Of a stretch of 51,196 bases of DNA, positions 31,302 through 45,703 are shown in pieces. The notes under the pieces are model-generated. The model was not told where the DNA came from. It made no database searches and saw nothing but the letters and a program-made list of their open reading frames with translations. The stretch is taken from positions 1-51,196 of the IMG/VR virus record IMGVR_UViG_3300030419_005995; one strand, 5' to 3'. This stretch comes from a virus. A program made the position numbers and the translations under genes. The stretch's first letter is position 1. Each line of letters starts with the position of its first letter.

Positions 31302-32456
31302 ATGGCTAATATACCAAAGGCAAAAAATGGAATTAACTCGCGGGCTTTTCACTATCAGAGAAGAGATTATGTTCGTAAAGGTTATCCATTGCTGGATGAG
31401 CGATACGCAATTGATTTGTGGTATGGACCAAAAGCTCTTTATGGGCGTGTGGATCATCGAGAAGAACCACAAATGATTTCAGAGACAAATCTAAAAAACT
31501 TTTTGTCTTCTCCTGAGCTTATGGCAGCAGATTTTGTGGTTGATGCTTTTGAAGATCTTCGACAATATATTATTAAATCTAAGCGTCAAGGCAAAATCAG
31601 CTTGGTTAACAGTTTCCTAAAATCTTTTATGCCAAAGAAAGCATGGATGAGTGCCCGTGAAGAGTTTGATGAGAATATAAAAGAAGTATATCGCGCTTTC
31701 GTTGGTACGTTCTTGGAGGCAACCTCAAGACATACAAAAATAAAACACTTTAAAGATTTTGCAACACAATTTTTAGAATTTTCTAAGATATCTGCATACA
31801 CTGTGCCCGTATCACTAACTGGTCTTGTCGCTTCTCGTTTTACTTCGCCACGAGTTAGTGGGTTGGTAGTGGAAATCGCAGACCATCCATATGATATGGA
31901 TGAAATAAAATATAAAAAGTATATGTCTGACCCCAATTTTCTTTTTTATCAGCGTGCAGCAAGAAAATTTGGTTTTCGTATTGACTACAATGTGCCTTGG
32001 CGTCTCGTTGCAGATGTTTCTTCTGCTGAAATGAAACAATATATGTTGAATTATGAAATTGAATCGACGCAGGATTTATTTGAGACATATTATTATGATG
32101 CATACAGGCTCGACTTATCTTTGCTAAAACCTCACATGATACAGCTGTATAATGACTATGTGACGGGTAATGCATACATAAAATATGTAAAATCAGGACC
32201 TTCTAGGGACCCTGGAACTCAGGAAACAGTGTTCAAGAGAGAAACAGTTACAGAGAGCGAACTGGATGCAAAGCATGGTAATTTTTACTGGCTAAAATTT
32301 TATTTTTATTTGAAAACCTATGAGCTACAAATTAAGTGGGACCCCGCCGCAGAGAGAAAGAGACTACAAGAGGCAAAAAATATTTTAGATTTGGTTGACT
32401 TCCCCTCAGCATTAGAGTATATTAGGGAGCAATTATTTAAGAACGCCAGAGGTTAA
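31302..32456 (+). CDS. Probable tail/baseplate virion protein, unknown family
   Basis: The 384-residue product is basic, Tyr/Phe/Lys rich, mostly helical with some beta, and has no enzyme motif, signal or membrane helix. It starts 14 bases after the hub gene (AGGAAAAAG upstream) and ends 2 bases before the polymerase gene's TTG start. Segments such as RVSGLVVEIADHPYDMDEIKY and YYYDAYRLDLSLLKPHMIQLYNDY look like conserved structure rather than low complexity. It is most likely the last gene of the tail block. Confidence 0.5.
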   Translation: MANIPKAKNGINSRAFHYQRRDYVRKGYPLLDERYAIDLWYGPKALYGRVDHREEPQMISETNLKNFLSSPELMAADFVVDAFEDLRQYIIKSKRQGKISLVNSFLKSFMPKKAWMSAREEFDENIKEVYRAFVGTFLEATSRHTKIKHFKDFATQFLEFSKISAYTVPVSLTGLVASRFTSPRVSGLVVEIADHPYDMDEIKYKKYMSDPNFLFYQRAARKFGFRIDYNVPWRLVADVSSAEMKQYMLNYEIESTQDLFETYYYDAYRLDLSLLKPHMIQLYNDYVTGNAYIKYVKSGPSRDPGTQETVFKRETVTESELDAKHGNFYWLKFYFYLKTYELQIKWDPAAERKRLQEAKNILDLVDFPSALEYIREQLFKNARG

Positions 32457-32458
32457 CT

Positions 32459-33643
32459 TTGCTCTTCCAAACTCTTGATGATAAAAAACATTGCGTAGGC
32501 ATCTATCAAGGTGGAGACATTTTTTACGACGCAATCCCCGGTGACCTCACAAAAACATGGTCATATGCACCATATTTGCAAGGAAGAGATATTCAATACG
32601 CTAGTTTGTATGTTGGCGGGCGCAGCCTGGGCGAAGTCTGCCCGCAAGATCTGAAAGAAGAGTGGTCTAGGATTAGCAACAAAATGAAGGCTTTCATAAA
32701 GGCCTTTACAGTCTCAAAAATTGACATAAAAGACGTTTGCTTGTTCTCCCTGATTCCTGACACGTTTTTGCTTGAATGGTGTGAAATAAAGAACAAAATT
32801 TGTGGCTATGTCTTTGAAAATTATGAAAAACCAAGCAACTATGATTTTCTTTTGGATCTCGCTACAATAACAGAGAAGATAAAGGCGCAGAAACTGAATA
32901 TTGACCCGAGTGAGTTAAAAACTCAGCTTGGATCTTATCGTTCGAGAGCATTTTTAAAGAAGTTGAATAGGATTGACCCCTTTATCTATTACAACATCTT
33001 TGGCACCATCACTGGTCGATTGACTACGAAGACCAATTCTTTTCCTATTTTGACTTTGGACAAGAAACATCGTAGAGTTTTGAAACCAAATAATGATTTG
33101 CTCGTCGAGCTTGACTATAACGCAGCTGAGTTGAGAACTTTCCTGGCATTGAGCGGCCAAGAACAGCCACAAGAGGACTTACATACTTGGAATATTGAAA
33201 ATCTCTTTCAAGGAGAGGGCACCCGCGAGGAAGCAAAGGTAAGATTGTTCGCTTGGTTATATAATCCAAATTCTGATGACTATTTGTTGAACCGAACGTA
33301 TGATCGTGAAAAGCTGCTTAAAGAAAGTTGGAAGAATGGTAAAATTACCACCAAGTTTGACAGGACCATAGAAGTGGACGAGCGCCGCGCCCTGAACTAT
33401 TTAATACAGAGCACTTCTTCGGACCTTTTTCTGAGACAGATGATAAAAATTAGCAAGATCCTTGAAAATGCAAGGTCCTATGTTGCGTTCAGTTTGCATG
33501 ATTCTGTTATATTAGATTTTGCTGCGGAGGACAAACATCTACTACCCAGAATCATTGAAGTTTTCGGCGATACGCAGTTTGGAAAATATCTTGTCAACGC
33601 TTCCATTGGCAAAGATTATGGAAACATGAGGAAATTTAAGTGA
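32459..33643 (+). CDS. Short family-A DNA polymerase
   Basis: The 394-residue protein has the palm motifs of family-A polymerases: TGRLTTKTNSFPIL (185-198), motif A DYNAAELR (219-226), motif B as R256-x3-K260-x3-F264-x3-Y268 (the usual Gly residues are Ala and Asn), the IQST-SSDLF helix (316-324), and motif C LHDS (346-349, His-Asp kept, Glu replaced by Ser). There is no recognisable 3'-5' exonuclease domain and the thumb and fingers are much reduced. TTG is the probable start: AGAGG lies upstream and the next Met is far inside. T4 itself uses a family-B enzyme. A separate 5'-3' exonuclease is encoded at 39946. Confidence 0.8.
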   Translation: MLFQTLDDKKHCVGIYQGGDIFYDAIPGDLTKTWSYAPYLQGRDIQYASLYVGGRSLGEVCPQDLKEEWSRISNKMKAFIKAFTVSKIDIKDVCLFSLIPDTFLLEWCEIKNKICGYVFENYEKPSNYDFLLDLATITEKIKAQKLNIDPSELKTQLGSYRSRAFLKKLNRIDPFIYYNIFGTITGRLTTKTNSFPILTLDKKHRRVLKPNNDLLVELDYNAAELRTFLALSGQEQPQEDLHTWNIENLFQGEGTREEAKVRLFAWLYNPNSDDYLLNRTYDREKLLKESWKNGKITTKFDRTIEVDERRALNYLIQSTSSDLFLRQMIKISKILENARSYVAFSLHDSVILDFAAEDKHLLPRIIEVFGDTQFGKYLVNASIGKDYGNMRKFK

Positions 33644-34458
33644 ATGTCATAGGTTTAGGTAATTGTGGGTGCAATATTGCCAAAGAATTTGGTAGATATC
33701 CTCAGTATAATGTATTTTTGATTGACACAGAGCCACATCACGGTGAGAACTTTTATTTACTGACCGAACAGGTCAACCCAGAACAATATGAGCGAACATG
33801 CCCTGATTTAGGTAATTTCTTAAGATGTGATGGAGAGGTAATTCTTGCCCTTGGTGGAAGCGGTTCTATTTCTGCTGCATGCTTGCGTGTTTTAGAAAAA
33901 GTAAAACATTGCAAGATTACAATCTTATATATAAAGTCTGATCAAGACTTGTTGAGTGAAGTTGGACGTTTGCAACAGCGTGCCACGTTTCATGTGCTTC
34001 AAGAATATGCTAGATCAGGTGTGTTTGAAAGAATCTTCCTTATCGACAACACCCTGGTGGCAGATATGATAGGTGAAGTTTCAATCGCCAATTACTATCA
34101 AACAATAAATCAAACAATAGCACCAGTTGTGCACTTTATCAACGTATTCAACAATAGCAAGCCGGTAATGAGTACTTTTTATTCCTTGGCGGACACATCG
34201 CGCATATGCACTTTGGGAATAGTCGATGTTGAGACCGGAGAAGAAAAAATGTTTTTTCCTCTTGACAATCGAACCGAGACCCGGTATTATTACGCCATCA
34301 GTGAGAAATCCTTGAAAGAGGATGGTACACTGCATAACAAAATCAAGTCGCAGGTCAAAAAGAAAGATGAGAAAACAAGCTTCGGAATATTTGAGACTGG
34401 GTATGATAATAATTTCTGTTATTCGCTCGCATGTTCACGACAAATTGTTCAAATTTGA
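33640..34458 (+). CDS. FtsZ/tubulin-like GTPase-fold protein, degenerate
   Basis: The 272-residue product follows the tubulin/FtsZ fold in order: VIGLGNCGCNIAKEF (3-17; FtsZ VIGVGGGGGNAV), VFLIDTE (25-31; FFAVNTD), VILALGGSGSISAA (67-80; the GGGTGTG T4 loop), FLIDNTLVADMIG (133-145; ITIPNDKLL), IANYYQTINQTIAPVVHFINV (149-169; AANDVLKGAVQGI...), then a C-terminal domain. The T7-loop region reads INVFNNSK (167-174), so the catalytic Asp residues of FtsZ (NLDFAD) are absent and the tubulin signature is partly lost. It starts with GTG overlapping the polymerase stop (GTGA), suggesting coupling. It lacks an FtsZ-type C-terminal tail. GTP binding is possible; hydrolysis is doubtful. Confidence 0.7.
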   Translation: MNVIGLGNCGCNIAKEFGRYPQYNVFLIDTEPHHGENFYLLTEQVNPEQYERTCPDLGNFLRCDGEVILALGGSGSISAACLRVLEKVKHCKITILYIKSDQDLLSEVGRLQQRATFHVLQEYARSGVFERIFLIDNTLVADMIGEVSIANYYQTINQTIAPVVHFINVFNNSKPVMSTFYSLADTSRICTLGIVDVETGEEKMFFPLDNRTETRYYYAISEKSLKEDGTLHNKIKSQVKKKDEKTSFGIFETGYDNNFCYSLACSRQIVQI

Positions 34459-34466
34459 TTTTTTAC

Positions 34467-34495
34467 TTGACTTCCACATTAAAGAATAGTATAAT
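34467..34495 (+). promoter_or_regulatory. Sigma70-type promoter for the DUF262-like gene
   Basis: TTGACT (34467-34472), a 17-base spacer and a perfect TATAAT (34490-34495) make a near-consensus host sigma70 promoter in the 108-base gap after the FtsZ-like gene. It points to early expression by host RNA polymerase. Confidence 0.9.
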
Positions 34496-34504
34496 ACGAT
34501 TAAT

Positions 34505-34542
34505 CATTTGATCAAATGAGACAAATGCTCTTTATTTGATCA
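34505..34542 (+). promoter_or_regulatory. Palindromic operator-like site with repeated half-site
   Basis: CATTTGATCAAATG (34505-34518) is a perfect 14-bp palindrome located at or just after the expected transcription start. Its core ATTTGATCA recurs at 34534-34542. Two spaced copies overlapping the start region suggest repressor binding; the regulator is unknown. The inner TGATCA also includes a GATC site. Confidence 0.6.
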
Positions 34543-34566
34543 CCATAACATATAGGAGGTAATAAA

Positions 34567-35793
34567 ATGATTAGAGGATTCACATTGAAGGAATATGCCG
34601 CCGCCGCAAAAAAGGTGTGGTACGATCCCGCGTTTGATCGTCGCTATGGTGCATGGGTAGATACTAAAAAACGTAACTTTCTTAAAAATGTCATCGATGA
34701 CAAGGTGGACTCCATGCCTGTCTGGGCAGATATCGATGAGTGCCTGTCACACTCAGTGCTGGTGGGCGATAGGGGAAGCAAGAAGAAGCTGCAAGATCTT
34801 AAAGATAGGGGATACAAATATATTTCTCTCGATGGCAAACACAGAACAAAAACTGTTGAAGCCTTTATGAACAGTGATTTGACAATCACGCACACAATTA
34901 AGGATTGCGAAGGGCAGATTCATAACATTACCAATAAGCATTGGTGCAAGTTCCCCAGCGAGGTCAAGCCGCAGATCTTTATGTCTAAAATCAATGTTCG
35001 CTTGGTGACAAGCGAAGTTTATGGTAATTTTGGAAAGCGGTACCGGGACTTAAATGATGGTGAACCTCCTAATCCCCAAGAGGTGCGCAACTCATATTCA
35101 TCTCCTGTGGCACAATATATTCGCGACGAAAGTGAGAGACTCAGGAGTGCTATGGAGCGCGTAGTCAAGAACAAATATATTGAAAGGATGATGGATGACG
35201 AGCTTGTAGTAAAGACCTATATACACCTGATCCAGAGATATAATCGTCAAGCGTTCAGTGTAGATGCCGGATTTCAACCCACTGTCTTAGATAAGTGGTA
35301 CACTGTTGGTAATGATGTCCGCAACATCGACTCCAACGGTTCCCCTTACATTAAGGCGGAGTTTGATCGTGCCAAGCAGATCATGAACACTGTCAGTAAA
35401 ATGCTTCTGGAACAGGAGGACGTACCAAACAGCAAAACAGTTTCTCACAAGATGTATTGGGCTTTTGTCTTTGCTGCGGAGTGGGCTCACAACGAAGATT
35501 ATAATGTTGTGGACTACATTACGCTTACTGGTGTGCTTAAAAATCTTGATGATGAGCTTAGTAGTCTCTCATTGACTGAGCATAGCAAAGAGGAAGAGCG
35601 CAAAAGAAAGAACGGGGAAGAATTGCAGGATATTGATAGAAATCAGTACTATTATGCATGGGCTCAATTAGTCCACCAGTCAAAGTACCGTGTGCAGCGC
35701 CGAGACGCTTTTGTTGCTCGTATTAAGAAGGAGGTTTCCAAAAATGGACCATCTTCTATGGGCTTGGTAGAGATGCAATCTGCGGCTGCATGA
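34567..35793 (+). CDS. DUF262-like (ParB/Srx-fold) protein
   Basis: The 408-residue product has the core marks of DUF262-type proteins: ISLDGKHRTKTVEAF (86-100; usual form LDGQQRLxTL), a strand MSKINVRLVTSE, then a segment resembling FxxLNxGxxPxxxExRNA (RYRDLNDGEPPNPQEVRNS), followed by a long helical C-terminal half rich in Glu, Lys and Arg. DUF262 occurs in GmrS-type subunits of type IV restriction and in many phage proteins of unknown role. There is no HNH motif like that of GmrD. It has its own strong promoter, palindromic operator and AGGAGG site, so it is probably early and regulated. Host takeover or anti-defence is possible. Confidence 0.65.
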   Translation: MIRGFTLKEYAAAAKKVWYDPAFDRRYGAWVDTKKRNFLKNVIDDKVDSMPVWADIDECLSHSVLVGDRGSKKKLQDLKDRGYKYISLDGKHRTKTVEAFMNSDLTITHTIKDCEGQIHNITNKHWCKFPSEVKPQIFMSKINVRLVTSEVYGNFGKRYRDLNDGEPPNPQEVRNSYSSPVAQYIRDESERLRSAMERVVKNKYIERMMDDELVVKTYIHLIQRYNRQAFSVDAGFQPTVLDKWYTVGNDVRNIDSNGSPYIKAEFDRAKQIMNTVSKMLLEQEDVPNSKTVSHKMYWAFVFAAEWAHNEDYNVVDYITLTGVLKNLDDELSSLSLTEHSKEEERKRKNGEELQDIDRNQYYYAWAQLVHQSKYRVQRRDAFVARIKKEVSKNGPSSMGLVEMQSAAA

Positions 35794-35825
35794 TCATGAA
35801 TGCTTTTCTTTTATAGAAAAAGTTC

Positions 35826-35854
35826 TTGACTAACTCAGATACAATTGGTATAAT
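35826..35854 (+). promoter_or_regulatory. Sigma70-type promoter for the SSB gene
   Basis: TTGACT (35826-35831), a 17-base spacer and TATAAT (35849-35854) form a second near-consensus promoter, identical in both hexamers to the one at 34467 and followed by the same AC. It lies in the 142-base gap before the SSB gene. Confidence 0.9.
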
Positions 35855-35863
35855 ACGCAACAG

Positions 35864-35887
35864 ATGACTGAGAGAGTTATCAGTCAT
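35864..35887 (+). promoter_or_regulatory. Leader hairpin of the SSB mRNA
   Basis: ATGACTGA and TCAGTCAT form an 8-bp stem with an 8-base loop (GAGAGTTA), starting close to the expected mRNA 5' end and 49 bases before the SSB start. It may stabilise the mRNA or act as a translational control element, in the way T4 gene 32 mRNA is autoregulated; the details here are unknown. Confidence 0.6.
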
Positions 35888-35935
35888 ACTATAGGGTAAT
35901 TTCACCCACCCATTAACAACATAGGAGGAAGAAAA

Positions 35936-36673
35936 ATGGGAATTGACATGAAGAAGATGCGCGAGAAGTACGCTGCACTCAAAAACCGAGGAGAGGGCAC
36001 AAGGAGTTCTTTCTGGCGTCCGCAGGATGGTGATCAGACCATCCGCATCGTTCCAACCGCTGACGGTGATCCGTTCAAGGAGTACTGGTTCCACTACAAC
36101 TTGGGCAAGAACTCAGGTTTCCTGAGCCCGAAGCGTAACTTTGGCGAGGATGATCCCCTCAATGACTTTGTTCGTTCCCTTTATCGAGAGAACACTGAGG
36201 AGAGCATCAAGATGGCTAAGAGCCTGTCCGCTCGCCAGCGATTCTTTGCACCGGTGGTTGTGCGCGGAGAGGAAGAAATGGGCGTGCGAGTTTGGGGTTT
36301 TGGTAAACAAGTCTATGAGACAATCCTTGGGCTGGTACTTAATCCAGAATATGGGGACATTACAGATCCAGAAACAGGCATTGATCTTACCATTAATTAT
36401 GGAAAGCCTGCTGGCGCACAGTTCCCACAAACCAAGCTTACTCCCAAGCGTCGATCAACTCCTCTGTTTGAGGAGACCTCCCGCATTCAGGAGGCTCTTG
36501 ACAGCGTGCCCGACTTCTCACAGCTTTTTGAGAGGAAGACACCTGCCGAGGTTCAGGCCATGCTTGACGAGTTCCTGCTTGGCGAACAGGATGCCGAAGA
36601 TGCCTCCTCTGAGACGGTGAAATACACCAACACCACCTCTGAGGTTGACAGAGCTTTTCAAGAGTTGATGTAA
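35936..36673 (+). CDS. 32: Single-stranded DNA-binding protein (gp32-like)
   Basis: This protein coats ssDNA during replication and recombination. The 245-residue product has a basic N-terminal segment (KMREKYAALKNRGEG), then a core starting SSFWRPQDGDQTIRIVP and KEYWFHYNLGK, the entry of the gp32 OB fold in marine T4-like phages, and an acidic C-terminal tail (EQDAEDASSE...). T4 gp32 has about 300 residues and a zinc-binding His/Cys cluster; here the corresponding stretch (LSPKRNFGEDDP) has no Cys, so the zinc site is lost. AGGAGG precedes the start. It has its own promoter and terminator, so it is a single-gene transcript suited to high output. Confidence 0.82.
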   Translation: MGIDMKKMREKYAALKNRGEGTRSSFWRPQDGDQTIRIVPTADGDPFKEYWFHYNLGKNSGFLSPKRNFGEDDPLNDFVRSLYRENTEESIKMAKSLSARQRFFAPVVVRGEEEMGVRVWGFGKQVYETILGLVLNPEYGDITDPETGIDLTINYGKPAGAQFPQTKLTPKRRSTPLFEETSRIQEALDSVPDFSQLFERKTPAEVQAMLDEFLLGEQDAEDASSETVKYTNTTSEVDRAFQELM

Positions 36674-36689
36674 TTTGGTGTAAGTTCCT

Positions 36690-36715
36690 GGGGGGCTTCG
36701 GCCCCCCTTTTTTTT
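36690..36715 (+). terminator. Strong intrinsic terminator with UUCG tetraloop
   Basis: GGGGGGC, loop TTCG, GCCCCCC and eight T residues form a perfect 7-bp stem with a very stable tetraloop, 16 bases after the SSB stop. The uvsX start follows 15 bases later, so uvsX must rely on read-through, antitermination or an unseen promoter. Confidence 0.95.
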
Positions 36716-36729
36716 ATAAGGAGGAATAA

Positions 36730-37851
36730 ATGGTAAACAAGGGTGGTATCTCCATTGAAGAGATGCGAAAGATGCTTAATAAAAAAGCAGGAATGACTGT
36801 TGCTCACAATTTGAAGGAAGAGAACCCGACAGAGGTTACAGAGTGGATTCCAACTGGGTCACACTGGCTGGATTCAATCATCTGTCGAGGCCAAAGAGCA
36901 GGAATCCCAGTAGGCAAGGTGACGGAGATCGCCGGACTTGAAGCCACGGGTAAATCTTATATGGCAGCCAAGATCGCTGCGAACGCTCAGAAAATGGGTA
37001 TCACCGTTGCTTACTTCGATAGTGAGAGTGCAATTGACCCATCTTTCCTTGAGAATGCAGGCTGCGATGTAGAGAATCTAATTTATGTTCAGGCTCAATC
37101 CGTTGAGATGGTGCTGGAATCTATTGAAGAGTTTCTGAAAACAGGTGGAAAGTTTCTTTTTGTCTGGGATTCTTTGGCTCTTACCCCTTCAATCAATGAT
37201 GTGGAGGGTGATTTCAACCCGATGTCACAGATGGCAGTCAAGGCCCGTATCCTTGCAAAGGCGATGAGCAAGCTGACCATCCCGATTGCGAACACTGAAT
37301 CTACATTCCTTGTTCTCAATCAGTTGAAGACAAACATCACCAGAAACCCCAATATGGCTCTCGTTGAGCCGTATGTGACACCCGGTGGTAAAGCAATGAT
37401 TTATGCTTATAGTCTTCGCATTTGGCTTACTGGTCGCAAGTCTAAGGCAGCTTACATCCAAGATGATAATGGTTTCCGTATTGGTTCCGAGGTTAAATCA
37501 ACCTTGAAGAAGAGCCGCTTCGGAACACAGGGTCGTCAAGCAACTTTTAAAATCCTTTGGGGTGACGAAGTTCGCATTCTGGATGAGGAGAGTTGGCTTG
37601 AAGCAATCAAGGCTTCCGAGCACATTACAATCAAGGGCGCGTGGTATTCTCTTGACATGGGAAATGGGGAAGTGGTAAAATTCCAGCCAGGAAGGTGGAT
37701 GGAGAAAATGAAGGACGAAGCTTTCAGATCCAGAGTATTGGAGGTGATGGATGAACACGTTGTCCAGAACTTTAAAACACGTCAGGGAAACCCTGAAGAT
37801 TTCTATGATGTAGACGGCGAAGAATCAGGAGACGGTAGTGATGATCAATGA
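36730..37851 (+). CDS. uvsX: UvsX/RecA-like recombinase
   Basis: This enzyme pairs DNA strands in recombination-dependent replication and repair. The 373-residue product (T4 UvsX 391) has Walker A GLEATGKS at 69-76, VAYFDSESAIDPSF (93-106), Walker B FLFVWDS at 142-148 and VLNQLKTN with the conserved Gln/Asn signal region, then a C-terminal domain with an acidic tail (DGEESGDGSDD). AAGGAGG lies before the ATG. It is followed by overlapping genes for a restriction-like protein and a methyltransferase. It starts immediately after a terminator. Confidence 0.93.
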   Translation: MVNKGGISIEEMRKMLNKKAGMTVAHNLKEENPTEVTEWIPTGSHWLDSIICRGQRAGIPVGKVTEIAGLEATGKSYMAAKIAANAQKMGITVAYFDSESAIDPSFLENAGCDVENLIYVQAQSVEMVLESIEEFLKTGGKFLFVWDSLALTPSINDVEGDFNPMSQMAVKARILAKAMSKLTIPIANTESTFLVLNQLKTNITRNPNMALVEPYVTPGGKAMIYAYSLRIWLTGRKSKAAYIQDDNGFRIGSEVKSTLKKSRFGTQGRQATFKILWGDEVRILDEESWLEAIKASEHITIKGAWYSLDMGNGEVVKFQPGRWMEKMKDEAFRSRVLEVMDEHVVQNFKTRQGNPEDFYDVDGEESGDGSDDQ

Positions 37852-38515
37852 AGGTAAGCTACAAACTGGCTTAGTTGAGGCTTTTAGGAAACCTTTGGAG
37901 TTTTCGTGCACCCAGGTAGGCGGTGTCAGATCTTCCAAGAGGACTGATATCTTAAATGAAGTTATTTTAGACCTCATGCTTGAACAACTAGGACCCGACT
38001 GGACTGGAAACACTGAACATAAGATCCCATGTGCTCGCGCCACTCAACAGGACCCTAAAAAAAAGTTCAGTATCGATGTTGTTCTTACAAACAAGCAAAC
38101 AAATAGAAGAGTATATATTCTATTAAAAAGCATTGAAAGTAGCTATAACAAAAACAGGGCGAATTTTGCTAATTGCACAATTGGTGAGACTGAGAGGATT
38201 TATGGATACTGCGAAATGCATGAGGGGCAGCGAGAGCAAAGACAAAATGATGTTACTTTGTTTTTGACACTGTTGCCTGTGCTGTGTCCTAATGGCGACC
38301 GGATGGAGACCACCAGGGCCGAAAAACCCTCAACCCGAACGTTGCGTCTGATTAATCCAAACGTGCATCAAATTTGTGCCATGGTTGATGTTGACTGTGC
38401 AGATGGTAAAGGAAAGCAGGCACTGCTTGACACTTTGACCGGTAAGATTACTAATATTGACGAAGTAGCAAACCAGTTTAGAGAGTTCTTTAATAATGTT
38501 AAACAAATTTTATGA
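37841..38515 (+). CDS. PD-(D/E)XK-like protein, possible restriction endonuclease
   Basis: I chose ATG 37841 (AGGAGA 8 bases upstream) over the GTG just before it. The gene overlaps uvsX by 11 bases and the methyltransferase by 20. In the 224-residue product FSIDVVL gives Asp79, and the next strand plus loop reads VYILLKSIESSYNKNRANF (91-109), followed by GETERIYG. Type II endonucleases often have D-x(n)-(E/D)-x-K followed by SxxxNR and a GExxR helix, so the layout matches, but Leu94 stands where the catalytic acid would be and only Lys96 is kept. It may be inactive, or the acid may come from elsewhere. Pairing with a DNA methyltransferase supports a restriction-modification relationship. Confidence 0.5.
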   Translation: MINEGKLQTGLVEAFRKPLEFSCTQVGGVRSSKRTDILNEVILDLMLEQLGPDWTGNTEHKIPCARATQQDPKKKFSIDVVLTNKQTNRRVYILLKSIESSYNKNRANFANCTIGETERIYGYCEMHEGQREQRQNDVTLFLTLLPVLCPNGDRMETTRAEKPSTRTLRLINPNVHQICAMVDVDCADGKGKQALLDTLTGKITNIDEVANQFREFFNNVKQIL

Positions 38516-39938
38516 GTATGAAGAACAGGTTGATTCCGCGAAAAGAACTCAACTTGGCATTGTCTATACTCCACCTTCAATTGTTGAATACATTAATATT
38601 AGAGTTCTAGAACTTTGGACTGAAGACGAGCCTCCAAGGGTTATTGATCCTTGTTGCGGCACGGGCATTTTTCTTTATGACATGGCGCATAGGATTGCTG
38701 CTCGGTGGTCACTAGACATTGTTGATGTTTACAGGGAGTGTATTCATGGCTATGATCTTGATGAAGATGCTGTTGACATAGCGAGATCTTTGATTCCTGA
38801 TGCAAACTTTAAAGTAATCGACTCATTGAATGCAAATTTAGATGAATATGATATTGTTGTAACTAATCCGCCATATGTGCGTATTCAAAATCTGGACGCA
38901 GAAACAAGAAAAAATATAAAGGATAGATTCTCGTTTTGTGTAGGAGACACAGACATCTACATTGCATTTTTTCAAAAATTGTTAGAGTCTGAAAAAATAA
39001 CTGGGTTCATCTGCCCAAACTCATGGATTAAAAACAAGTTTGCTTCACGCTTGCGACAGTCTTTAAAAAAAGAGGCTAGAACAGACACAATCATCGATTT
39101 CCGATCAGAGAGAGTGTTCCAGAATGTAGGAACATATACAAGCATTGTCATCTTGGATAACAAGAAAGCCAAGACGGTAAAGGTTGGCAATCATCTTCAT
39201 AAACAGACGGAGATTGAACAGTCTAATCTGTTTTTGGGCGAGGTTCTGTTAGTAGATCAGCAAAATCGACAATTTGTTGCGGACGTGTCATCAAGAGAAA
39301 GAAGTGTTTTTGATGTGTGTGACATAAAGGTTGGACTGGCCACTCTTGCGGACGATGTTTTTTGTTTAGAGCTGGTAAGTGTGGATTTTGAGAGGTCTAC
39401 TGTAAGAAAAAGAAAGAAAGATTCAGAATGTTTTGAAATTGAAACTGCCTGCCTGAGGCCCTGCGCTCGCGCTGGTGACATCACAAAAAACAGTGACAAA
39501 GCTTATGTGATGATTTATCCATATACAGAGGACGGGGAAGATTTGCAGGAGAGCAAAATTAAAGAAAGTTTCCCGAGGACGTACCAGTATCTCTTATCCA
39601 ACAAGTCCCGCTTACTAGAAAGAGACAAGGGCAAGTGTGAAAAGAAAGGTTACAAATGGTATCAGTTCGGAAGGAAACAGGGGCTGAATTTAACTGAAAA
39701 AGAAAAGATACTTTTTGCTTCAATGACCAAGGAAAAAATGGCAATGCAGTATTGTGGCAAAGGTGTATCTTTTGTATCGGGTTATTGCATAATTCCAAAA
39801 TCCGGCTTTACACTTAAACAGATAAATGAAGTGTTTTCCTCTGCCGACGTGGGAAACTGGATCTCAATTTTTGGAAAGAACTTTGGCACTGAATGGGTTG
39901 GGGTGTCGAAAGAAACATTCAAACATTTTAAAGTGTGA
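38496..39938 (+). CDS. DNA adenine N6-methyltransferase (TaqI/Eco57I type)
   Basis: The 480-residue product has the start typical of gamma-class adenine methyltransferases (TQLGIVYTPPSIVEYI, 18-33), SAM-binding motif I DPCCGTG (51-57), an acidic residue after the second strand (YDLDEDAV, 86-93), and catalytic NPPY (124-127). The C-terminal half resembles a TaqI-type target recognition domain (GYKWYQFGRKQGLN, then a late VSGYCIIPK and a C-terminal helix). It would methylate adenine at an unknown site in phage or host DNA. Coupling with the upstream PD-(D/E)XK-like gene suggests an RM pair, but orphan phage methyltransferases are common. Confidence 0.85.
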   Translation: MLNKFYEYEEQVDSAKRTQLGIVYTPPSIVEYINIRVLELWTEDEPPRVIDPCCGTGIFLYDMAHRIAARWSLDIVDVYRECIHGYDLDEDAVDIARSLIPDANFKVIDSLNANLDEYDIVVTNPPYVRIQNLDAETRKNIKDRFSFCVGDTDIYIAFFQKLLESEKITGFICPNSWIKNKFASRLRQSLKKEARTDTIIDFRSERVFQNVGTYTSIVILDNKKAKTVKVGNHLHKQTEIEQSNLFLGEVLLVDQQNRQFVADVSSRERSVFDVCDIKVGLATLADDVFCLELVSVDFERSTVRKRKKDSECFEIETACLRPCARAGDITKNSDKAYVMIYPYTEDGEDLQESKIKESFPRTYQYLLSNKSRLLERDKGKCEKKGYKWYQFGRKQGLNLTEKEKILFASMTKEKMAMQYCGKGVSFVSGYCIIPKSGFTLKQINEVFSSADVGNWISIFGKNFGTEWVGVSKETFKHFKV

Positions 39939-39945
39939 GTAGAAC

Positions 39946-40920
39946 ATGAGCAAAAGAATCTTAATCATCGATGCGCTTAATATGATGTATCGTAATTATA
40001 TCGTTGATCCAAGTATTTCAACGAATGGTGCCCCCATTGGAGGCCTCAAGGGTTTCATGAAGTCCTTGCAAAAACTTGTTAGGGAAACCAGCCCCAATGA
40101 GATTATTATCTGCTGGGATGGCGAAGGCGGCTCACAAAAGCGCAGATCACAAAATAAAGATTATAAAGGTGGTCGCAAGCCTGTTCGCCTTAACCGGATG
40201 GCCAAGAACCTCACAGACGAGGAAGAGGCAGAGAATAAGTTCTGGCAACAGATCCGTTTGATTGAATACCTCAACCACCTCCCAGTAACACAGTTGATGT
40301 TGCCGAGCGTTGAGGCTGATGATATCATTGGTTATGTCGCACAATATTCCAAATTTAGGGAACACCAGAAAGTAATTGTTTCCAGCGACAAAGATTTTTT
40401 TCAATTGTGCAGCGGACAAACAATTCTTTATAGGCCCATCCAGAAAACTATCCTGAATGAATCACGAGTCATTGAAGAATATAGCATTCATCCCAATAAC
40501 TTTGCTCTTGCTCGCGCAATTTGCGGAGATCCCAGTGATAACATCAAAGGGATCCAGGGTGCAGGCCTAGCCACAATTGCAAAGAGGTTTCCTTTCTTGA
40601 AACAACAAGAGTCTAGCACCATTGATATGATTATTGAACACTGCGAGTCGCAAGAAAAGAAGCTGCTCATCCACCAGAGAATCCTTGACAATCGCGACAA
40701 AATAGTGGATAATTACAAAATGATGCAGCTCTATTCCCCATCTATTTCAGCCCAAGGTACAGAAAAAATCAGGGCAAAGCTAGATAACGAAGATCGTATC
40801 TTCAACAAGACAGGCATCATAGCGATGATGTTTGAGGATGGGGTTGGAGAATATAATTGGACTGAACTGTGGACTTGTTTCAACAAGATCGTCTGGGCAA
40901 GTAATACACATTTGTTCTAA
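39946..40920 (+). CDS. 5'-3' exonuclease / RNase H of the FEN family
   Basis: This nuclease removes RNA primers and flaps. The 324-residue product (T4 RNase H is 305) has the PIN/FEN acidic residues in order: Asp9 (LIIDALN), Asp58 (ICWDGEGG), Glu123 with Asp125/Asp126 (SVEADDIIGY), Asp148/Asp150 (SSDKDFFQL) and Asp195/Asp198 (GDPSDNIKG), followed by the helix-hairpin-helix start GIQGAGLATI. It complements the short polymerase at 32459, which has no 5'-3' nuclease domain. It starts 7 bases after the methyltransferase gene and ends 5 bases before a tRNA gene. Confidence 0.9.
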   Translation: MSKRILIIDALNMMYRNYIVDPSISTNGAPIGGLKGFMKSLQKLVRETSPNEIIICWDGEGGSQKRRSQNKDYKGGRKPVRLNRMAKNLTDEEEAENKFWQQIRLIEYLNHLPVTQLMLPSVEADDIIGYVAQYSKFREHQKVIVSSDKDFFQLCSGQTILYRPIQKTILNESRVIEEYSIHPNNFALARAICGDPSDNIKGIQGAGLATIAKRFPFLKQQESSTIDMIIEHCESQEKKLLIHQRILDNRDKIVDNYKMMQLYSPSISAQGTEKIRAKLDNEDRIFNKTGIIAMMFEDGVGEYNWTELWTCFNKIVWASNTHLF

Positions 40921-40925
40921 TTTAA

Positions 40926-40999
<74 letters not shown>

Positions 41000-41013
41000 C
41001 TAAGAGGTAAAAG

Positions 41014-41127
41014 ATGGATTTAGCAACAACTGTGGGAGTTTTTATGAACGCTTGTATGGCAGTGGTGATAGTTACGGGCATGCTTCTGTTTATCTGTTTA
41101 AACGTAAGGTATAAAGATGAAAAATGA
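41014..41127 (+). CDS. Tiny single-pass membrane protein (37 aa)
   Basis: A short frame starts at ATG 41014 with AAGAGGT 5 bases upstream and ends at TGA 41125-41127, overlapping the next start as ATGA. The peptide has an acidic first residue, a hydrophobic helix of about 24 residues (VGVFMNACMAVVIVTGMLLF then ICL) and a basic/charged tail (NVRYKDEK). The good ribosome site, membrane-helix composition and overlap with the next gene support a real gene. Function unknown; it could modify the host membrane or a membrane enzyme. Confidence 0.6.
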   Translation: MDLATTVGVFMNACMAVVIVTGMLLFICLNVRYKDEK

Positions 41128-41342
41128 GTTCGGTTGGTGACCTTGTAAGCCTTAAAGAAGAATTTGCGCGTGAATTCTATCACGTTGGCGCAGAGAAAGA
41201 TCTTGGTGTTGGTATAGTATTGTCAGAGTTTGTCACACCAAATCATGAGTTATTTTTTGAGGTTAGTTGGTCCGCTGGATATCGTGAATACATAAGACCA
41301 TCATGGTTGCGATTAGTTAAAAAAAACCCTAGTAATTCATAG
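41124..41342 (+). CDS. Small SH3-like beta-barrel protein (72 aa)
   Basis: The start overlaps the previous stop (ATGA). The product has the strand pattern of small phage SH3-like proteins: SSVGDLVSLKEEF, then DLGVGIVLSEF, then FFEVSW and a terminal WLRLV. Such folds often bind nucleic acid or peptides, but nothing here fixes the function. It sits between a tRNA and the helicase gene. Confidence 0.5.
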   Translation: MSSVGDLVSLKEEFAREFYHVGAEKDLGVGIVLSEFVTPNHELFFEVSWSAGYREYIRPSWLRLVKKNPSNS

Positions 41343-41364
41343 AAGGATAGTATATAATACTCCC

Positions 41365-42750
41365 ATGCAAACGGTAAGCGCACTCAGTTTTGAGCAACAA
41401 GAAGATTTCTCTCGTTTCGGCAAATCCTTTCAGGAAAATCTTTGCCGTTTAATTTTATTGGACCGTCCCTTCGCAGATCAGATTGGAGAAGTGCTTGATT
41501 TCAATTTCTTTGAGTTGAAATACTTGCAGATCTTTTGCAAGAAGATCTATGCATATAAGGAAAAATACAAGGCCCATCCAACGCCGGATGTAATGATGAC
41601 GATTCTGCGCACCGAACTTGAGGCGGAGAATGATGCGACCGCGAACCAAGTTCGGAGCTATTTCGCCAGAGTGTTGTCTAAGGATAGTAACGATGGCGTT
41701 GCATACATTAAGGACACCTCTCTTGACTTTTGCAAGAAACAAAAATTGAAAGAGGCAATCTTAAAATCAATAAAGCTGATTCAAAGTTCATCTTTTGATG
41801 AAATAAAATGTGAGATTGATGGTGCCTTAAAGTTGGGTGCAGATAATAATTTTGGACATGATTATATAAAAGACTTTGAGGCAAGATTCATACCAAAACA
41901 TAGAGATCCAGTATCAACAGGTTGGACAGAGATAGATTCCATCTGTCGAGGCGGACATGGCAAAGGGGAGCTTGGTGTGGTTATCGCCCCCACTGGTGCT
42001 GGTAAATCTATGGCACTAGTTCACCTTGGGGCACAAGCTTTACGGGCAGGCAAGACAGTGGTTCACTACACACTGGAACTTCAAGACACGGTTGTTGCAG
42101 GTCGATATGATAGTTGTTTAACTGGCATACCTTTGTCGAGGCTTCTTGAACACAAGGAGGACATTCTGGAACATGTGCAGGACTTAGAAGGAAACCTGAT
42201 TGTAAAAGAATATCCAACAAAATCTGCCACTGTAAATGTACTCAGAAATCACCTAAGCAAGCTTGTTAATCGCGGGATTGATGTGGGGATGATTATAGTG
42301 GATTACGGTGACCTTCTCAGACCAACTCGACAAAGAAATGAGAAGAGAATAGAATTAGAATCTATTTACGAAGAGCTGCGAGGATTGGCCCAAGAATTTG
42401 GGTGCCCAGTCTGGACAGCTTCCCAGACAAACCGTTCTGGACTTAACGCTGAAGTTATTACCATGGAATCGATTTCGGAAGCATTTAACAAGTGCTTCGT
42501 AGCGGATCTTATTTTCTCAATTTCGAGAACAGTCGAAGACAAAAATACAAATACTGGCAGGGTCTATGTGGCCAAGAATAGAAATGGGCCAGATGGGTTA
42601 GTGTTTCCAATTTTTATGGATACGTCGAATGTAAAGATAAAAGTTTTGCCGCAAGACGAGCAAACACAAAACGCAGCTTACAGGTCCACAAAGGACGCTA
42701 TGGAAGATTTAAGAGAAAAGTACAAGAATTTTAGGAGCAAAGACAAATGA
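41365..42750 (+). CDS. 41: Replicative DNA helicase (DnaB/gp41-like)
   Basis: The hexameric helicase unwinds DNA at the fork. The 461-residue product has an N-terminal helical domain (1-165) and a RecA-like C-terminal domain with Walker A APTGAGKS (208-215), Glu in YTLELQ (235-240), Walker B IIVDYGD (310-316), and WTASQTNRSG (sensor loop) followed by an arginine-finger region ISRTVEDKNTNTGR. T4 gp41 is 475 residues. A weak AAGGA lies 17 bases upstream, so the ribosome site is poor. It overlaps the RNR gene (ATGA). Confidence 0.92.
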   Translation: MQTVSALSFEQQEDFSRFGKSFQENLCRLILLDRPFADQIGEVLDFNFFELKYLQIFCKKIYAYKEKYKAHPTPDVMMTILRTELEAENDATANQVRSYFARVLSKDSNDGVAYIKDTSLDFCKKQKLKEAILKSIKLIQSSSFDEIKCEIDGALKLGADNNFGHDYIKDFEARFIPKHRDPVSTGWTEIDSICRGGHGKGELGVVIAPTGAGKSMALVHLGAQALRAGKTVVHYTLELQDTVVAGRYDSCLTGIPLSRLLEHKEDILEHVQDLEGNLIVKEYPTKSATVNVLRNHLSKLVNRGIDVGMIIVDYGDLLRPTRQRNEKRIELESIYEELRGLAQEFGCPVWTASQTNRSGLNAEVITMESISEAFNKCFVADLIFSISRTVEDKNTNTGRVYVAKNRNGPDGLVFPIFMDTSNVKIKVLPQDEQTQNAAYRSTKDAMEDLREKYKNFRSKDK

Positions 42751-44630
42751 AAAAGAACAAGTCAATTCAAATCCTCTCAGACCTTACGCATTTTATGAAG
42801 TATGCGAAGTATATCGAGTCTGAAAACAGACGCGAGACTTTTGCAGAAACTACATTGCGTAACAAGGAAATGCATTTAAAAAAGTTTCCTGAATTGGCTG
42901 ATGAAATTGACAAGGCTTATTCTTTTGTATACAACAAGAAGGTGTTACCTTCTATGCGCTCAATGCAATTCGCTGGCAAACCTATTGAGTTGAACAACTC
43001 CAGAATCTTTAACTGCTCCTATCTGCCAATTGATCATATTGATTCTTTTTCAGAGATCATGTTCTTGTTGTTGTCTGGTTGTGGAGTTGGCTTCTCAGTC
43101 CAGCGTCATCATGTGGAAGCTCTTCCGGCAGTTAAGGGGCCAAAAATTAACCCAAACACTGGCAAGATGCGCCCCCGCAGATATGTTATTGGCGATTCAA
43201 TTGAAGGCTGGGCTGACGCTGTTAAAGTTCTTGTAGAAGCATACTTTCATGAAAAGTCTAATCCTGAGTTTGTTTATGATGGCATCCGCCCCAAGGGCGC
43301 TCGCCTAATCACTTCGGGCGGCAAAGCCCCTGGGCCACAGCCCCTCAAGGATTGTATTCACAACATCAGAAAGGTTCTGGATAACAAACCTCGTGGTTCA
43401 AAACTTTCTACAATTGAAGTTCATGACATTGTCTGTTATATTGCAGACGCTGTACTTGCAGGCGGAATCCGCAGAGCAGCACTGATTTCTCTTTTTTCTT
43501 TTGATGACGAAGAGATGAGGACTGCTAAGTTTGGTTCTTGGTGGGAGAAAAATCCACAACGCGCACGAGCTAACAACTCAGCCGTTGCCCTGCGCCACCG
43601 CATTAAAAAGAAAGAGTTTCTTGAACTTTGGGAGAAGATTGAGAACTCAAACTCTGGTGAGCCTGGGATTTATTTCAGCAATAATCAAGATTGGGGAGCC
43701 AACCCTTGCGTCGAGATTGGCCTGAGACCATTCCAGTTCTGTAATCTTGTTGAAATCAACGGGTCTATCCCCTACAAGAGTCAGGAAGAGTTCAACGAAG
43801 TGTGCCGCGCAGCGAGTTTTATTGCAACTTTGCAGGCGTCTTATACTGAGTTCCACTATCTAAGGGAAGTTTGGAAAGAGACAACAGAAAAAGATGCCTT
43901 GATTGGCGTCAGTATCACCGGTATCGCAAGTGGAATGCTTGATAATTTTGACCTCACAGAAGCTGCGAATGCTGTCATTGATGAGAACAGAAATCTTGCA
44001 GAAAGGATTAATATCAATGCAGCAGCCCGCACAACTTGCGTAAAACCTGCCGGAACTACCTCTTGTATCCTTGGAACCAGTTCTGGTATCCACGCTTGGC
44101 ACAATGATCACTTTATCCGTCGCATCCGCGTTGGAAAGAATGAGCCAATTTATCAATATCTGGCAGACAACCACCCAGATTTGTTGGAGGATGATTTCTT
44201 TAAATCTCACAGTCAGGCTGTAATTGCTTTGCCTATTAAGGCACCAGAGAATTCAGTTTTAAGAACTGAAACTGCAATGGACTTTTTGGATCGCGTCAAG
44301 AAATATAGCGAGGAGTGGGTTCTAGCTGGTCACGTCTCAGGGCAGAACAGTCACAACGTGTCTGCAACTGTTGCAGTGAAACAAGACGAATGGGGTTCGG
44401 TGGCACAGTGGATGTGGAACAATAGAGATTCTTTTAATGGGCTTAGTGTTCTTCCACATGACGGCGGCACCTATATGCAGGCGCCTTTTGAGGACTGTGA
44501 TGAAAAAACCTACAATAAACTTTATAGAAAATTGGAGAACGTAGATCTCACCATGGTATCAGAAGAGGTGGATAATACAGACCAAAAGGGCGAGCTTGCA
44601 TGTGCCGGTGGTGCATGCGAAATCATTTAA
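42747..44630 (+). CDS. nrdJ: Class II (B12-dependent) ribonucleotide reductase, monomeric type
   Basis: This enzyme makes deoxyribonucleotides from ribonucleotides using adenosylcobalamin. The 627-residue product matches the Lactobacillus RTPR type: first active-site Cys90 (RIFNCSYLP), SGCGVGFSV (110-118), NPCVE with radical Cys321 (319-323), second redox Cys332 eleven residues later (as in RTPR Cys408 and Cys419), and a C-terminal Cys619-x4-Cys624 shuttle (CAGGACEII). No beta subunit is needed. Oxygen-independent but B12-dependent, so the host must have cobalamin. It overlaps the helicase gene and precedes other nucleotide genes. Confidence 0.92.
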   Translation: MKKNKSIQILSDLTHFMKYAKYIESENRRETFAETTLRNKEMHLKKFPELADEIDKAYSFVYNKKVLPSMRSMQFAGKPIELNNSRIFNCSYLPIDHIDSFSEIMFLLLSGCGVGFSVQRHHVEALPAVKGPKINPNTGKMRPRRYVIGDSIEGWADAVKVLVEAYFHEKSNPEFVYDGIRPKGARLITSGGKAPGPQPLKDCIHNIRKVLDNKPRGSKLSTIEVHDIVCYIADAVLAGGIRRAALISLFSFDDEEMRTAKFGSWWEKNPQRARANNSAVALRHRIKKKEFLELWEKIENSNSGEPGIYFSNNQDWGANPCVEIGLRPFQFCNLVEINGSIPYKSQEEFNEVCRAASFIATLQASYTEFHYLREVWKETTEKDALIGVSITGIASGMLDNFDLTEAANAVIDENRNLAERININAAARTTCVKPAGTTSCILGTSSGIHAWHNDHFIRRIRVGKNEPIYQYLADNHPDLLEDDFFKSHSQAVIALPIKAPENSVLRTETAMDFLDRVKKYSEEWVLAGHVSGQNSHNVSATVAVKQDEWGSVAQWMWNNRDSFNGLSVLPHDGGTYMQAPFEDCDEKTYNKLYRKLENVDLTMVSEEVDNTDQKGELACAGGACEII

Positions 44631-44684
44631 AAAAACTTGTGATTTGTAATACTATTGAGCTAAGAATTAACAAAGGAGCAAGAG

Positions 44685-44978
44685 ATGAGATTCATACCAG
44701 CACATAAACATATATTGGTACAAAAAAGAAGTCAGGTTGTTGAAGAGCAAGAGCCATTAGTTCTGCTGCCGGAAGGTTACCAACCAAAGCGAGAAGATTA
44801 CACAAGAGTCAAGGTATTGCAGACTCCTGAAAATTGTACTATACCAGCAGGAGCCGGTGACGAACTTGTTGTTCGCGAAGGTTTTATCGAAGAACTCTCA
44901 TTAGATGGCAATACATTCTATTTAGTATTAGAAAATCACGTAATGGGAGTTATTAAAAATGAAAAATCTACTGCATGA
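44685..44978 (+). CDS. GroES/gp31-like co-chaperonin
   Basis: The 97-residue product has the GroES pattern: IPAHKHILVQKRSQ at the start, a mobile-loop-like stretch ending in VLLPEGY, then DYTRVKVLQTPENCTIPAGAGDELVV, and a closing strand pair FYLVLENHVMGVI. T4 uses gp31 to replace GroES so that GroEL can fold the capsid protein; a similar role is expected. Sequence identity to bacterial GroES is low, so this is fold-pattern recognition. AAAGGAGCAAGAG precedes the ATG. It overlaps the next gene by 20 bases. Confidence 0.6.
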   Translation: MRFIPAHKHILVQKRSQVVEEQEPLVLLPEGYQPKREDYTRVKVLQTPENCTIPAGAGDELVVREGFIEELSLDGNTFYLVLENHVMGVIKNEKSTA

Positions 44979-45696
44979 GTGGTACAGATATCTGAACGAA
45001 GGTTCTTTTGGGCGCTTTAAACGAAAGATTGACGAGGGCAATATTCCCTTTGCTCTTGTTTCTGCTTATCGAGAAGGCGGTGGCAACCAAACGAGACATA
45101 AAAATATAAAGTCTGATCTTGTTTCAATGGGATATTCTTTCACAGAGGTGGTTGGTGGAGGCCAAGAAGAGCTAAAAGACGAAGAAGGTCAGCCAGTCAC
45201 AGATGAGGAAGGCAAGCCCAAGGTCACTAATGTAAGGGAGATGACCCTGTTGGTCACACCGGAGAAAAGAGGCGAGGGTGGTCTTGAAAGGACAGCACAA
45301 GAAACTATGAGCCTTTTTAGAAATATTCAGTCTCTTGCTTCCAAATACGAGCAGTTTGCCTTTATCTTTGGCTATCCAAGAGAAATCAAAGACAGTGTAA
45401 CTGGCGATACAACAACTGATATGTTTATTGCTGCTTATGACTCATCAGCGGAAGCCCCCGGTGAAGCACACCGTATTAAAGATGCTTGGGCTGGCCCTTG
45501 GACTTCAATTGAGCGTGCAGCCGACGATGATATCTACTATACAAAGATCGCAGGAACAAAAGGGGCCTTGGTCCAAGAGTTTATTAAATCTAAAATTAAT
45601 GAAATAAAATCCTTGAAAGCGAAGAGTCAATTTGATAGAATGAAGAAGAGTTACGAAGTTAAAAGATGGCAGAGCCTCTTAGAACAAGACCAATAG
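44959..45696 (+). CDS. DUF3293-like protein with CTS-like N-terminus
   Basis: The 245-residue product begins MKNLLHEWYRYLNEG, a short amphipathic helix ending in L-N-E, close in type to the start of the protein at 50711 and to the T4 capsid-targeting peptide. After about residue 27 comes IPFALVSAYREGG with RHKNIKSDLVSMGYSFTEV (to ~75), a pattern I recall from DUF3293-like phage proteins, and later FAFIFGYPRE. Function is unknown. GGGAG lies 9 bases upstream, inside the GroES-like gene. It may be a packaged and ejected protein; this is inference from the N-terminus. Confidence 0.55.
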   Translation: MKNLLHEWYRYLNEGSFGRFKRKIDEGNIPFALVSAYREGGGNQTRHKNIKSDLVSMGYSFTEVVGGGQEELKDEEGQPVTDEEGKPKVTNVREMTLLVTPEKRGEGGLERTAQETMSLFRNIQSLASKYEQFAFIFGYPREIKDSVTGDTTTDMFIAAYDSSAEAPGEAHRIKDAWAGPWTSIERAADDDIYYTKIAGTKGALVQEFIKSKINEIKSLKAKSQFDRMKKSYEVKRWQSLLEQDQ

Positions 45697-45703
45697 GTGG
45701 GGG

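What the first reader, a model, noticed from the sequence alone, without database searches (positions are those of the whole stretch)
37841..39938. Restriction-modification-like pair inside the recombination operon
Seen: a PD-(D/E)XK-like protein (Asp79, LLKSIESSYNKNR, GETERI) overlaps an adenine methyltransferase gene (DPCCGTG, NPPY) by 20 bases, and overlaps uvsX by 11. The expected catalytic acid is Leu94. Established: type II RM genes are often adjacent or overlapping; phages usually carry orphan methyltransferases, not active endonucleases. Inference: either an active endonuclease that cuts host or rival-phage DNA while the methyltransferase protects the phage, or an inactivated endonuclease kept as a DNA-binding or regulatory partner.
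Basis: partly seen in the sequence, partly recalled or inferred. Interest (0 to 1): 0.75.

Follow-up and report, generated by a model that had tools for sequence, protein, structure and literature searches.

The report
Phage restriction-modification pair, relocated catalytic acid
Two overlapping genes in an uncultured virus of bacteria appear to encode a complete DNA-cutting and DNA-protecting pair; the cutter belongs to an unrecognised branch of restriction enzymes, distantly related to XhoI, whose catalytic acid seems to have moved rather than been lost, so the virus could destroy unprotected host or rival DNA while sparing its own.

Summary
In detail: a 224-aa protein (R, 37841-38515) overlaps uvsX by 11 bp and an intact gamma-class adenine methyltransferase (M, 38496-39938) by 20 bp. 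R has no Pfam, NCBIfam, PADLOC or PDB sequence match, but methyltransferase-led searches found relatives of R beside M relatives in other phages, jumbo phages, CPR bacteria, Leptospiraceae and archaea; methyltransferase-blind genome searches gave the same pairing in 11 of 12 new loci. Profile comparison joins R to the XhoI/PaeR7I endonucleases (96% probability; controls <=0.2%), and AlphaFold2 gives a PD-(D/E)XK fold. Leu94 is not evidence of inactivation. Across 97 sequences, either the acid two residues before the catalytic Lys is present, or an acid sits at the column of Glu116 (33 versus 63; both in one; neither in none), and two separate members inside R's own branch have switched back. 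This resembles the carboxylate migration of Cfr10I/NgoMIV (PD-XXK-E). Best explanation: an active Type II restriction-modification system carried by a phage, with predicted active site E59/D79/K96/E116. Cyanophage homologues pair instead with a beta-class methyltransferase (19 of 74 loci) or stand alone. Cleavage, target sequence and active-site geometry are untested. New variant of a known kind.

The parts
36730..37851 (+). uvsX/RecA-like recombinase, upstream neighbour; its last 11 bp overlap R
   Evidence: PHROG 97 UvsX-like 3e-56
37841..38515 (+). R: predicted PD-(D/E)XK Type II restriction endonuclease, 224 aa, distant relative of XhoI/PaeR7I
   Evidence: relatives next to M in phages, bacteria and archaea; profile match to XhoI 96% with controls <=0.2%; AF2 model with alpha-beta-beta-beta-alpha-beta core; Foldseek hits mostly PD-(D/E)XK nucleases
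38015..38017 (+). codon of Glu59, predicted first active-site acid
   Evidence: E in 56 of 59 aligned members
38075..38077 (+). codon of Asp79, the catalytic Asp of the PD half-motif
   Evidence: invariant 59/59
38120..38122 (+). codon of Leu94, where ExK enzymes carry the acid
   Evidence: L, S, G, M, P or N in most members; E in the XhoI group and in three other members
38126..38128 (+). codon of Lys96, predicted catalytic Lys
   Evidence: K in 56 of 59
38186..38188 (+). codon of Glu116 (GETERI), predicted relocated catalytic acid
   Evidence: E/D in all 63 sequences lacking the -2 acid; absent from 33 of 34 sequences that have it; in-branch switches in L176 and L243
38496..39938 (+). M: gamma-class N6-adenine DNA methyltransferase (Eco57I/BseCI-like), predicted cognate protector
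38646..38666 (+). methyltransferase motif I, DPCCGTG
   Evidence: core P52, G55 and G57 invariant in the six-member M alignment
38865..38876 (+). methyltransferase catalytic motif IV, NPPY
   Evidence: invariant in the six-member M alignment
39946..40920 (+). 5'-3' exonuclease, downstream neighbour, not part of the pair
   Evidence: Pfam 5_3_exonuc_N 1.4e-30

Best explanation
The pair is a complete Type II restriction-modification system carried by a phage. M methylates adenine in a short target on newly made phage DNA. R is a PD-(D/E)XK endonuclease that cuts the same target when unmethylated, so host chromosome and rival phage DNA are cut while the phage's own, already methylated, genome is spared. 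R belongs to an unrecognised branch of the XhoI/PaeR7I superfamily in which the second catalytic acid has moved from two residues before the catalytic Lys to the following helix (E116); predicted active site E59, D79, K96, E116. Shown by computation: gene overlap, family, fold, linkage to methyltransferases, and the mutually exclusive acids. Inferred: catalysis, a shared target, methylation of virion DNA, and use against host or rival DNA.
For: M-led searches bring in loci where the ORF beside M matches the R profile at 1e-50 to 1e-19 in phages, 261-735 kb phages, Patescibacteria, Altiarchaea, Leptospiraceae, Rhodothermales and other archaea, in three gene orders. R-led, M-blind genome searches gave 12 new loci of R's own branch; 11 have the gamma methyltransferase within 88 bp or overlapping. 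Profile comparison: core family without XhoI members versus XhoI 96.4%, E 1.2e-9, against <=0.2% for two methyltransferase families, IMPDH and reversed XhoI. L186, L189 and L187 are Pfam XhoI, and their M partners were recovered by the same M query. AF2: window R pLDDT 78.6, pTM 0.80; bacterial relative L142 94.7/0.91; Foldseek hits include BstEII, MunI, BamHI, DrdV, BspD6I2, EcoT38I and Can2. Acid swap: 63/33/1/0 over 97 sequences; restricted to R's branch, Fisher p=0.0014. Carboxylate migration is established for Cfr10I, NgoMIV and others (PMC551604; PMC4652773). The pair recurs at different genome positions in related phages (L168-L171, with M 41-45% and IMPDH 48-57% identical), which suggests it is kept for a function. 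R homologues also pair with a beta-class (19 cyanophage loci) or a Dam-type methyltransferase (L253).
Against: No activity data. The prediction tool returns no coordinates, so whether E116 reaches D79/K96 was not measured; there are 19 residues between K96 and E116, against 12-13 in the Cfr10I/NgoMIV group. On the tree only three independent acid switches are informative (sign test p=0.25). Foldseek E-values are modest (best about 5e-3, TM about 0.3), so the fold call rests on the whole pattern. Many cyanophage R genes have no adjacent methyltransferase, so R need not always work in a pair. A few members lack a residue (L003 has Met at Lys96; two archaeal-type members have Arg). The window is a fragment; host and lifestyle are unknown.
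Confidence: 0.77

Rival explanations
1. R is catalytically dead (acid lost at Leu94) and kept as a DNA-binding or regulatory partner of M.
For: Leu94 replaces the canonical acid; phage R-M genes are mostly solitary methyltransferases (PMC4176335).
Against: The same replacement occurs in nearly all members, including chromosomal R-M systems, always with an acid at 116; D79, K96 and E59 are nearly invariant. Two members that have the -2 acid inside R's branch lost the one at 116 (L176, L243).
Confidence: 0.12
2. R is an active nuclease whose main job is breakdown of host DNA, or processing in recombination, independent of M; the neighbourhood of M is incidental.
For: 55 of 74 cyanophage loci carry R without an adjacent methyltransferase; S-WAM1 has no PF01555, PF00145 or PF02384 methyltransferase; the window pair sits between uvsX and an exonuclease.
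Against: Tight linkage to methyltransferases across bacteria, archaea and phages and to three methyltransferase types; common descent with Type II restriction enzymes. Neighbouring genes differ in other phages (polymerase III-like, dUTPase-like, gp46-like, topoisomerase-like; inspection), so recombination genes are not a constant partner.
Confidence: 0.1
3. R is modification-dependent (Type IV-like) and cuts methylated host DNA.
For: A phage R without methyltransferase would be safe if only modified DNA is cut; the top structural hit of the bacterial relative is AF1548, a protein of unknown function.
Against: Homology is to XhoI/PaeR7I, which cut unmethylated sites (established knowledge); no extra reader domain in about 200 aa; a resident adenine methyltransferase next to a methyl-dependent nuclease would be self-harming.
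Confidence: 0.04

Closest known systems
XhoI/PaeR7I Type II R-M systems (Pfam PF04555 plus gamma N6A methyltransferase)
   Same: Both components are homologous: R by profile comparison, M recovered with the same query. Same size, core topology and conserved Asn-rich stretch after the catalytic Lys.
   Different: Window R has no Pfam match, lacks the ExK acid and has E116 where XhoI members have S, T, N or M; E59 is absent in most XhoI members.
Cfr10I/NgoMIV/Ecl18kI (CCGG-family) endonucleases
   Same: Residue order E...D...K...E and a carboxylate relocated to the helix after the Lys strand (PMC551604, PMC4652773).
   Different: No detectable sequence relation; K-x19-E instead of K-x12-13-E; the migration appears independent, within the XhoI superfamily.
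M.BseCI and M.TaqI (gamma N6-adenine methyltransferases)
   Same: Window M matches M.BseCI at 3.6e-20 and M.TaqI at 1.5e-4, with motif I and NPPY.
   Different: Shorter (480 vs 585 aa for BseCI) with a divergent target-recognition part; target unknown.
Chlorella virus R-M systems (for example CviAII)
   Same: A virus carrying its own Type II endonuclease and methyltransferase (PMC4081073).
   Different: Eukaryotic algal viruses; no sequence relation was tested here.
Restriction endonuclease-like protein of Synechococcus phage S-CAM7 (BFVD A0A1D8KTP6)
   Same: Same family; structure match 1.8e-8, and already named 'Restriction endonuclease' in the structure library.
   Different: Its candidate methyltransferase is beta-class and lies 14 kb away.

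Membership tests
Type II restriction-modification system | endonuclease and methyltransferase genes linked | tested here: met
   20 bp overlap in the window; linkage conserved in about 40 M-derived loci and 11 of 12 M-blind loci
Type II restriction-modification system | methyltransferase with intact SAM-binding and catalytic motifs | tested here: met
   DPCCGTG and NPPY; Eco57I, N6_Mtase, MTase_II matches
Type II restriction-modification system | endonuclease with a nuclease fold and complete catalytic set | tested here: inconclusive
   Fold supported; catalytic set predicted from conservation and acid swap; geometry not measured
Type II restriction-modification system | sequence-specific cleavage blocked by the cognate methylation | not testable with these tools
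   needs biochemistry
PD-(D/E)XK superfamily | alpha-beta-beta-beta-alpha-beta core with Asp on strand 2 and Lys on strand 3 | tested here: met
   H32-50, E54-63, E75-84 (D79), E90-97 (K96), H102-121, E138-145
PD-(D/E)XK superfamily | acid two residues before the catalytic Lys | tested here: not met
   Leu94; an acid at column 116 in all members lacking it; such migration is a documented variant of the superfamily
XhoI family PF04555 | match above Pfam gathering score | tested here: not met
   no match for window R; nearest phage relative L169 17.6 bits against cut-off 25
XhoI family PF04555 | common descent | tested here: met
   hhalign 95-96% with controls <=0.2%
CCGG family (Cfr10I, NgoMIV) | K-x12-13-E spacing | tested here: not met
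   K96-x19-E116; not filed as a member, only works like it
gamma-class N6-adenine methyltransferase | motif I, then NPPY, then C-terminal recognition part | tested here: met
   PADLOC MTase_II aligned 8-480

The most novel reading that the evidence does not exclude
A widespread, unnamed branch of Type II restriction endonucleases (phages, jumbo phages, CPR bacteria, archaea) in which the catalytic carboxylate moved to Lys+20 inside the XhoI superfamily and has switched at least twice more within the branch; phages carry it as a mobile weapon against host and rival DNA, exchanging gamma, beta or Dam-type methyltransferase partners and sometimes dispensing with one.
Probability: 0.55. Interest if true: 0.72.

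Novelty: new variant of a known kind. Interest (0 to 1): 0.6.

Why it matters
Complete R-M systems are described as nearly absent from phages (nine in 831 genomes, PMC4176335), and Type II endonucleases as rarely phage-borne (PMC4081073). Part of that scarcity may be blindness: this endonuclease branch is invisible to Pfam, NCBIfam and PADLOC, yet 80 IMG/VR loci were returned by one capped scan. The family offers a natural experiment on active-site migration, with both states in close relatives, and candidates for new restriction enzymes.

Tried and rejected
(1) R alone in 85,000 genomes found nothing, because the peptide patterns are too divergent; searching with M solved it. (2) I first concluded that cyanophage R genes lack a methyltransferase neighbour, using a motif search that required [NDS]PP[YFWL]; this missed a beta-class enzyme with DLPY. 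One search corrected it: 19 of 74 loci have it adjacent. (3) Guessing the target from missing palindromes: TTCGAA looked specific to R-bearing cyanophages but is present in other R-bearing contigs (35 against 116 expected), and cyanophages avoid many palindromes; abandoned. (4) Direct sequence search of solved structures with R or its profile: no significant match; an XhoI-family member also has no solved relative by sequence. (5) E59 as the replacement for the missing acid: rejected as the interchangeable one, since L176 and L243, which have ExK, still have E59 but lost E116.

Full report
OBSERVATION. R (224 aa) starts 11 bp inside the end of uvsX, and M (480 aa) starts 20 bp inside the end of R; a 5'-3' exonuclease follows. 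The genes from 31302 to 47496 considered here lie on the + strand. The record is a 51,196-bp IMG/VR virus fragment. M is an intact gamma-class N6-adenine methyltransferase. R alone has no Pfam, NCBIfam, PADLOC or PDB match and only one PHROG of unknown function.

RELATIVES OF R. Direct search gave cyanophage homologues (S-CAM7, S-WAM1) and then 80 IMG/VR loci. The turning point was a 735-kb phage (L003): its M homologue sits tail to tail with a 231-aa ORF carrying the same VRSxKRT and NKN signatures. An M alignment was then used to search genomes and viral contigs. In those loci the ORF beside M is repeatedly hit by the R profile (1e-50 to 1e-19), a few bases away or overlapping, in three arrangements: R before M, R after M, and convergent. 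Hosts include Patescibacteria, Altiarchaea, Leptospiraceae, Rhodothermales, Micrarchaeota and Methanobrevibacter, besides phages. Because those loci were chosen through M, I repeated the search with R only: of 12 new loci of R's own branch, 11 have the gamma methyltransferase overlapping or within 88 bp, one 666 bp away.

RELATION TO XHOI. Some members are plain Pfam XhoI (L186, L189, L187; 1e-58 to 1e-38). To exclude profile drift I compared the family without those members against them: 96.4%, E 1.2e-9; with an enlarged XhoI set 95.3%; controls (beta methyltransferase, gamma methyltransferase, IMPDH, reversed XhoI) 0.1-0.2%. Since the M genes of XhoI-type loci came in through the same M query, both halves of the system share ancestry with XhoI-type systems.

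FOLD. AlphaFold2 on window R: pLDDT 78.6, pTM 0.80, with the alpha-beta-beta-beta-alpha-beta order expected of PD-(D/E)XK enzymes, D79 on strand 2 and K96 on strand 3. Bacterial relative L142: pLDDT 94.7, pTM 0.91. Foldseek hits are modest in score but mostly of this fold at the top (BstEII, MunI, BamHI, DrdV, EcoT38I, BspD6I2, Can2).

THE MISSING ACID. In PD-(D/E)XK enzymes the second acid lies two residues before the Lys; here it is Leu94. In the alignment the position is L, S, G, M, P or N in almost all members outside the XhoI group. Over 97 sequences: no acid at -2 with acid at 116, 63; acid at -2 without acid at 116, 33; both, 1 (L184); neither, 0. Two big clades explain much of this count, so I built a tree without the two columns: three switches in which both positions change in opposite directions, one in which only one changes; the sign test cannot be significant with so few (p=0.25). 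Inside R's branch alone, the two E116 losses both fall among the three sequences that have ExK (Fisher p=0.0014). E59 stays in those two sequences, so it is not the interchangeable acid. The order E-D-K-E equals that of the CCGG-family enzymes, in which carboxylate migration is established (PMC551604; PMC4652773). The spacing differs (K-x19-E against K-x12-13-E), and I could not measure the geometry because no coordinates are returned.

PHAGE CONTEXT. Related phages L168, L169, L170 and L171 share M at 41-45% and IMPDH at 48-57% identity with the window and carry the pair at other positions, for example next to a DNA polymerase III-like gene and a dUTPase-like gene (gene names there from inspection). 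L177 and L085 have it near gp46/gp47-like genes. The cassette therefore moves, and the uvsX neighbourhood is not essential. The window phage also encodes ThyX and IMP dehydrogenase and a probable ribonucleotide reductase (by inspection), so host DNA breakdown for nucleotides is plausible but not shown.

CYANOPHAGES. 19 of 74 cyanophage loci with DNA beyond R have a PF01555 methyltransferase starting within -62 to +7 bp of R's end. S-CAM7 carries a homologue (70% identity) 14 kb away. S-WAM1 and one 187-kb contig have none, and also no PF00145 or PF02384 enzyme; Dam-type enzymes were not searched there. L253 has R next to a Dam-type enzyme. Changing partners while keeping R's active-site residues is hard to reconcile with a dead R; genuinely solitary copies remain unexplained.

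VERDICT. A phage-borne Type II R-M system with an endonuclease from an unrecognised branch of the XhoI superfamily. What is shown is family, fold, linkage and the exclusive placement of the acid. Activity, target and biological use are inferred. Whole phage R-M systems are rare but known (PMC4176335; PMC4081073), so this is a new variant of a known kind, not a new category.

Noticed in passing
L264-L273 (S-WAM1), L274-L284 (S-CAM7), L285-L294 (187-kb contig): Extreme palindrome avoidance in cyanophages carrying R: CCGG 0 of 460 expected in S-WAM1 and 0 of 506 in the contig, GGCC 0 of 388 in S-CAM7; 16 to 29 of 64 six-base palindromes absent.
   Followed up: partly
window, whole: Ten six-base palindromes are absent although at least 5 were expected, including TTCGAA and TACGTA (0 of 16 each), CTCGAG and GTCGAC (0 of 9 each).
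   Followed up: partly
33640-34458: 272-aa protein with GLGNCGCN and GGSGSIS stretches that recall FtsZ/tubulin GTP-binding motifs; no significant Pfam or PHROG match.
   Followed up: no
34567-35793: 408-aa protein with a DGKHR-like stretch and weak matches to PHROGs of unknown function; possible ParB/DGQHR-like domain.
   Followed up: no
L253:3887-4985: Phage relative in which R overlaps a Dam-type methyltransferase (PF05869, 4e-32) and no gamma methyltransferase is found in the locus.
   Followed up: partly
L184:3322-3834: Only member with both the ExK acid and an acid at column 116; could be an intermediate of the migration.
   Followed up: no
L201 (genome G001, next to L134's system): A second, broken R copy with stops, in the same genome near fragments of M: a decaying duplicate of the R-M system.
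   Followed up: no
L244, L245, L246: Phage contigs of 58-65 kb with a bacterial-type R and no gamma methyltransferase within 3 kb.
   Followed up: no
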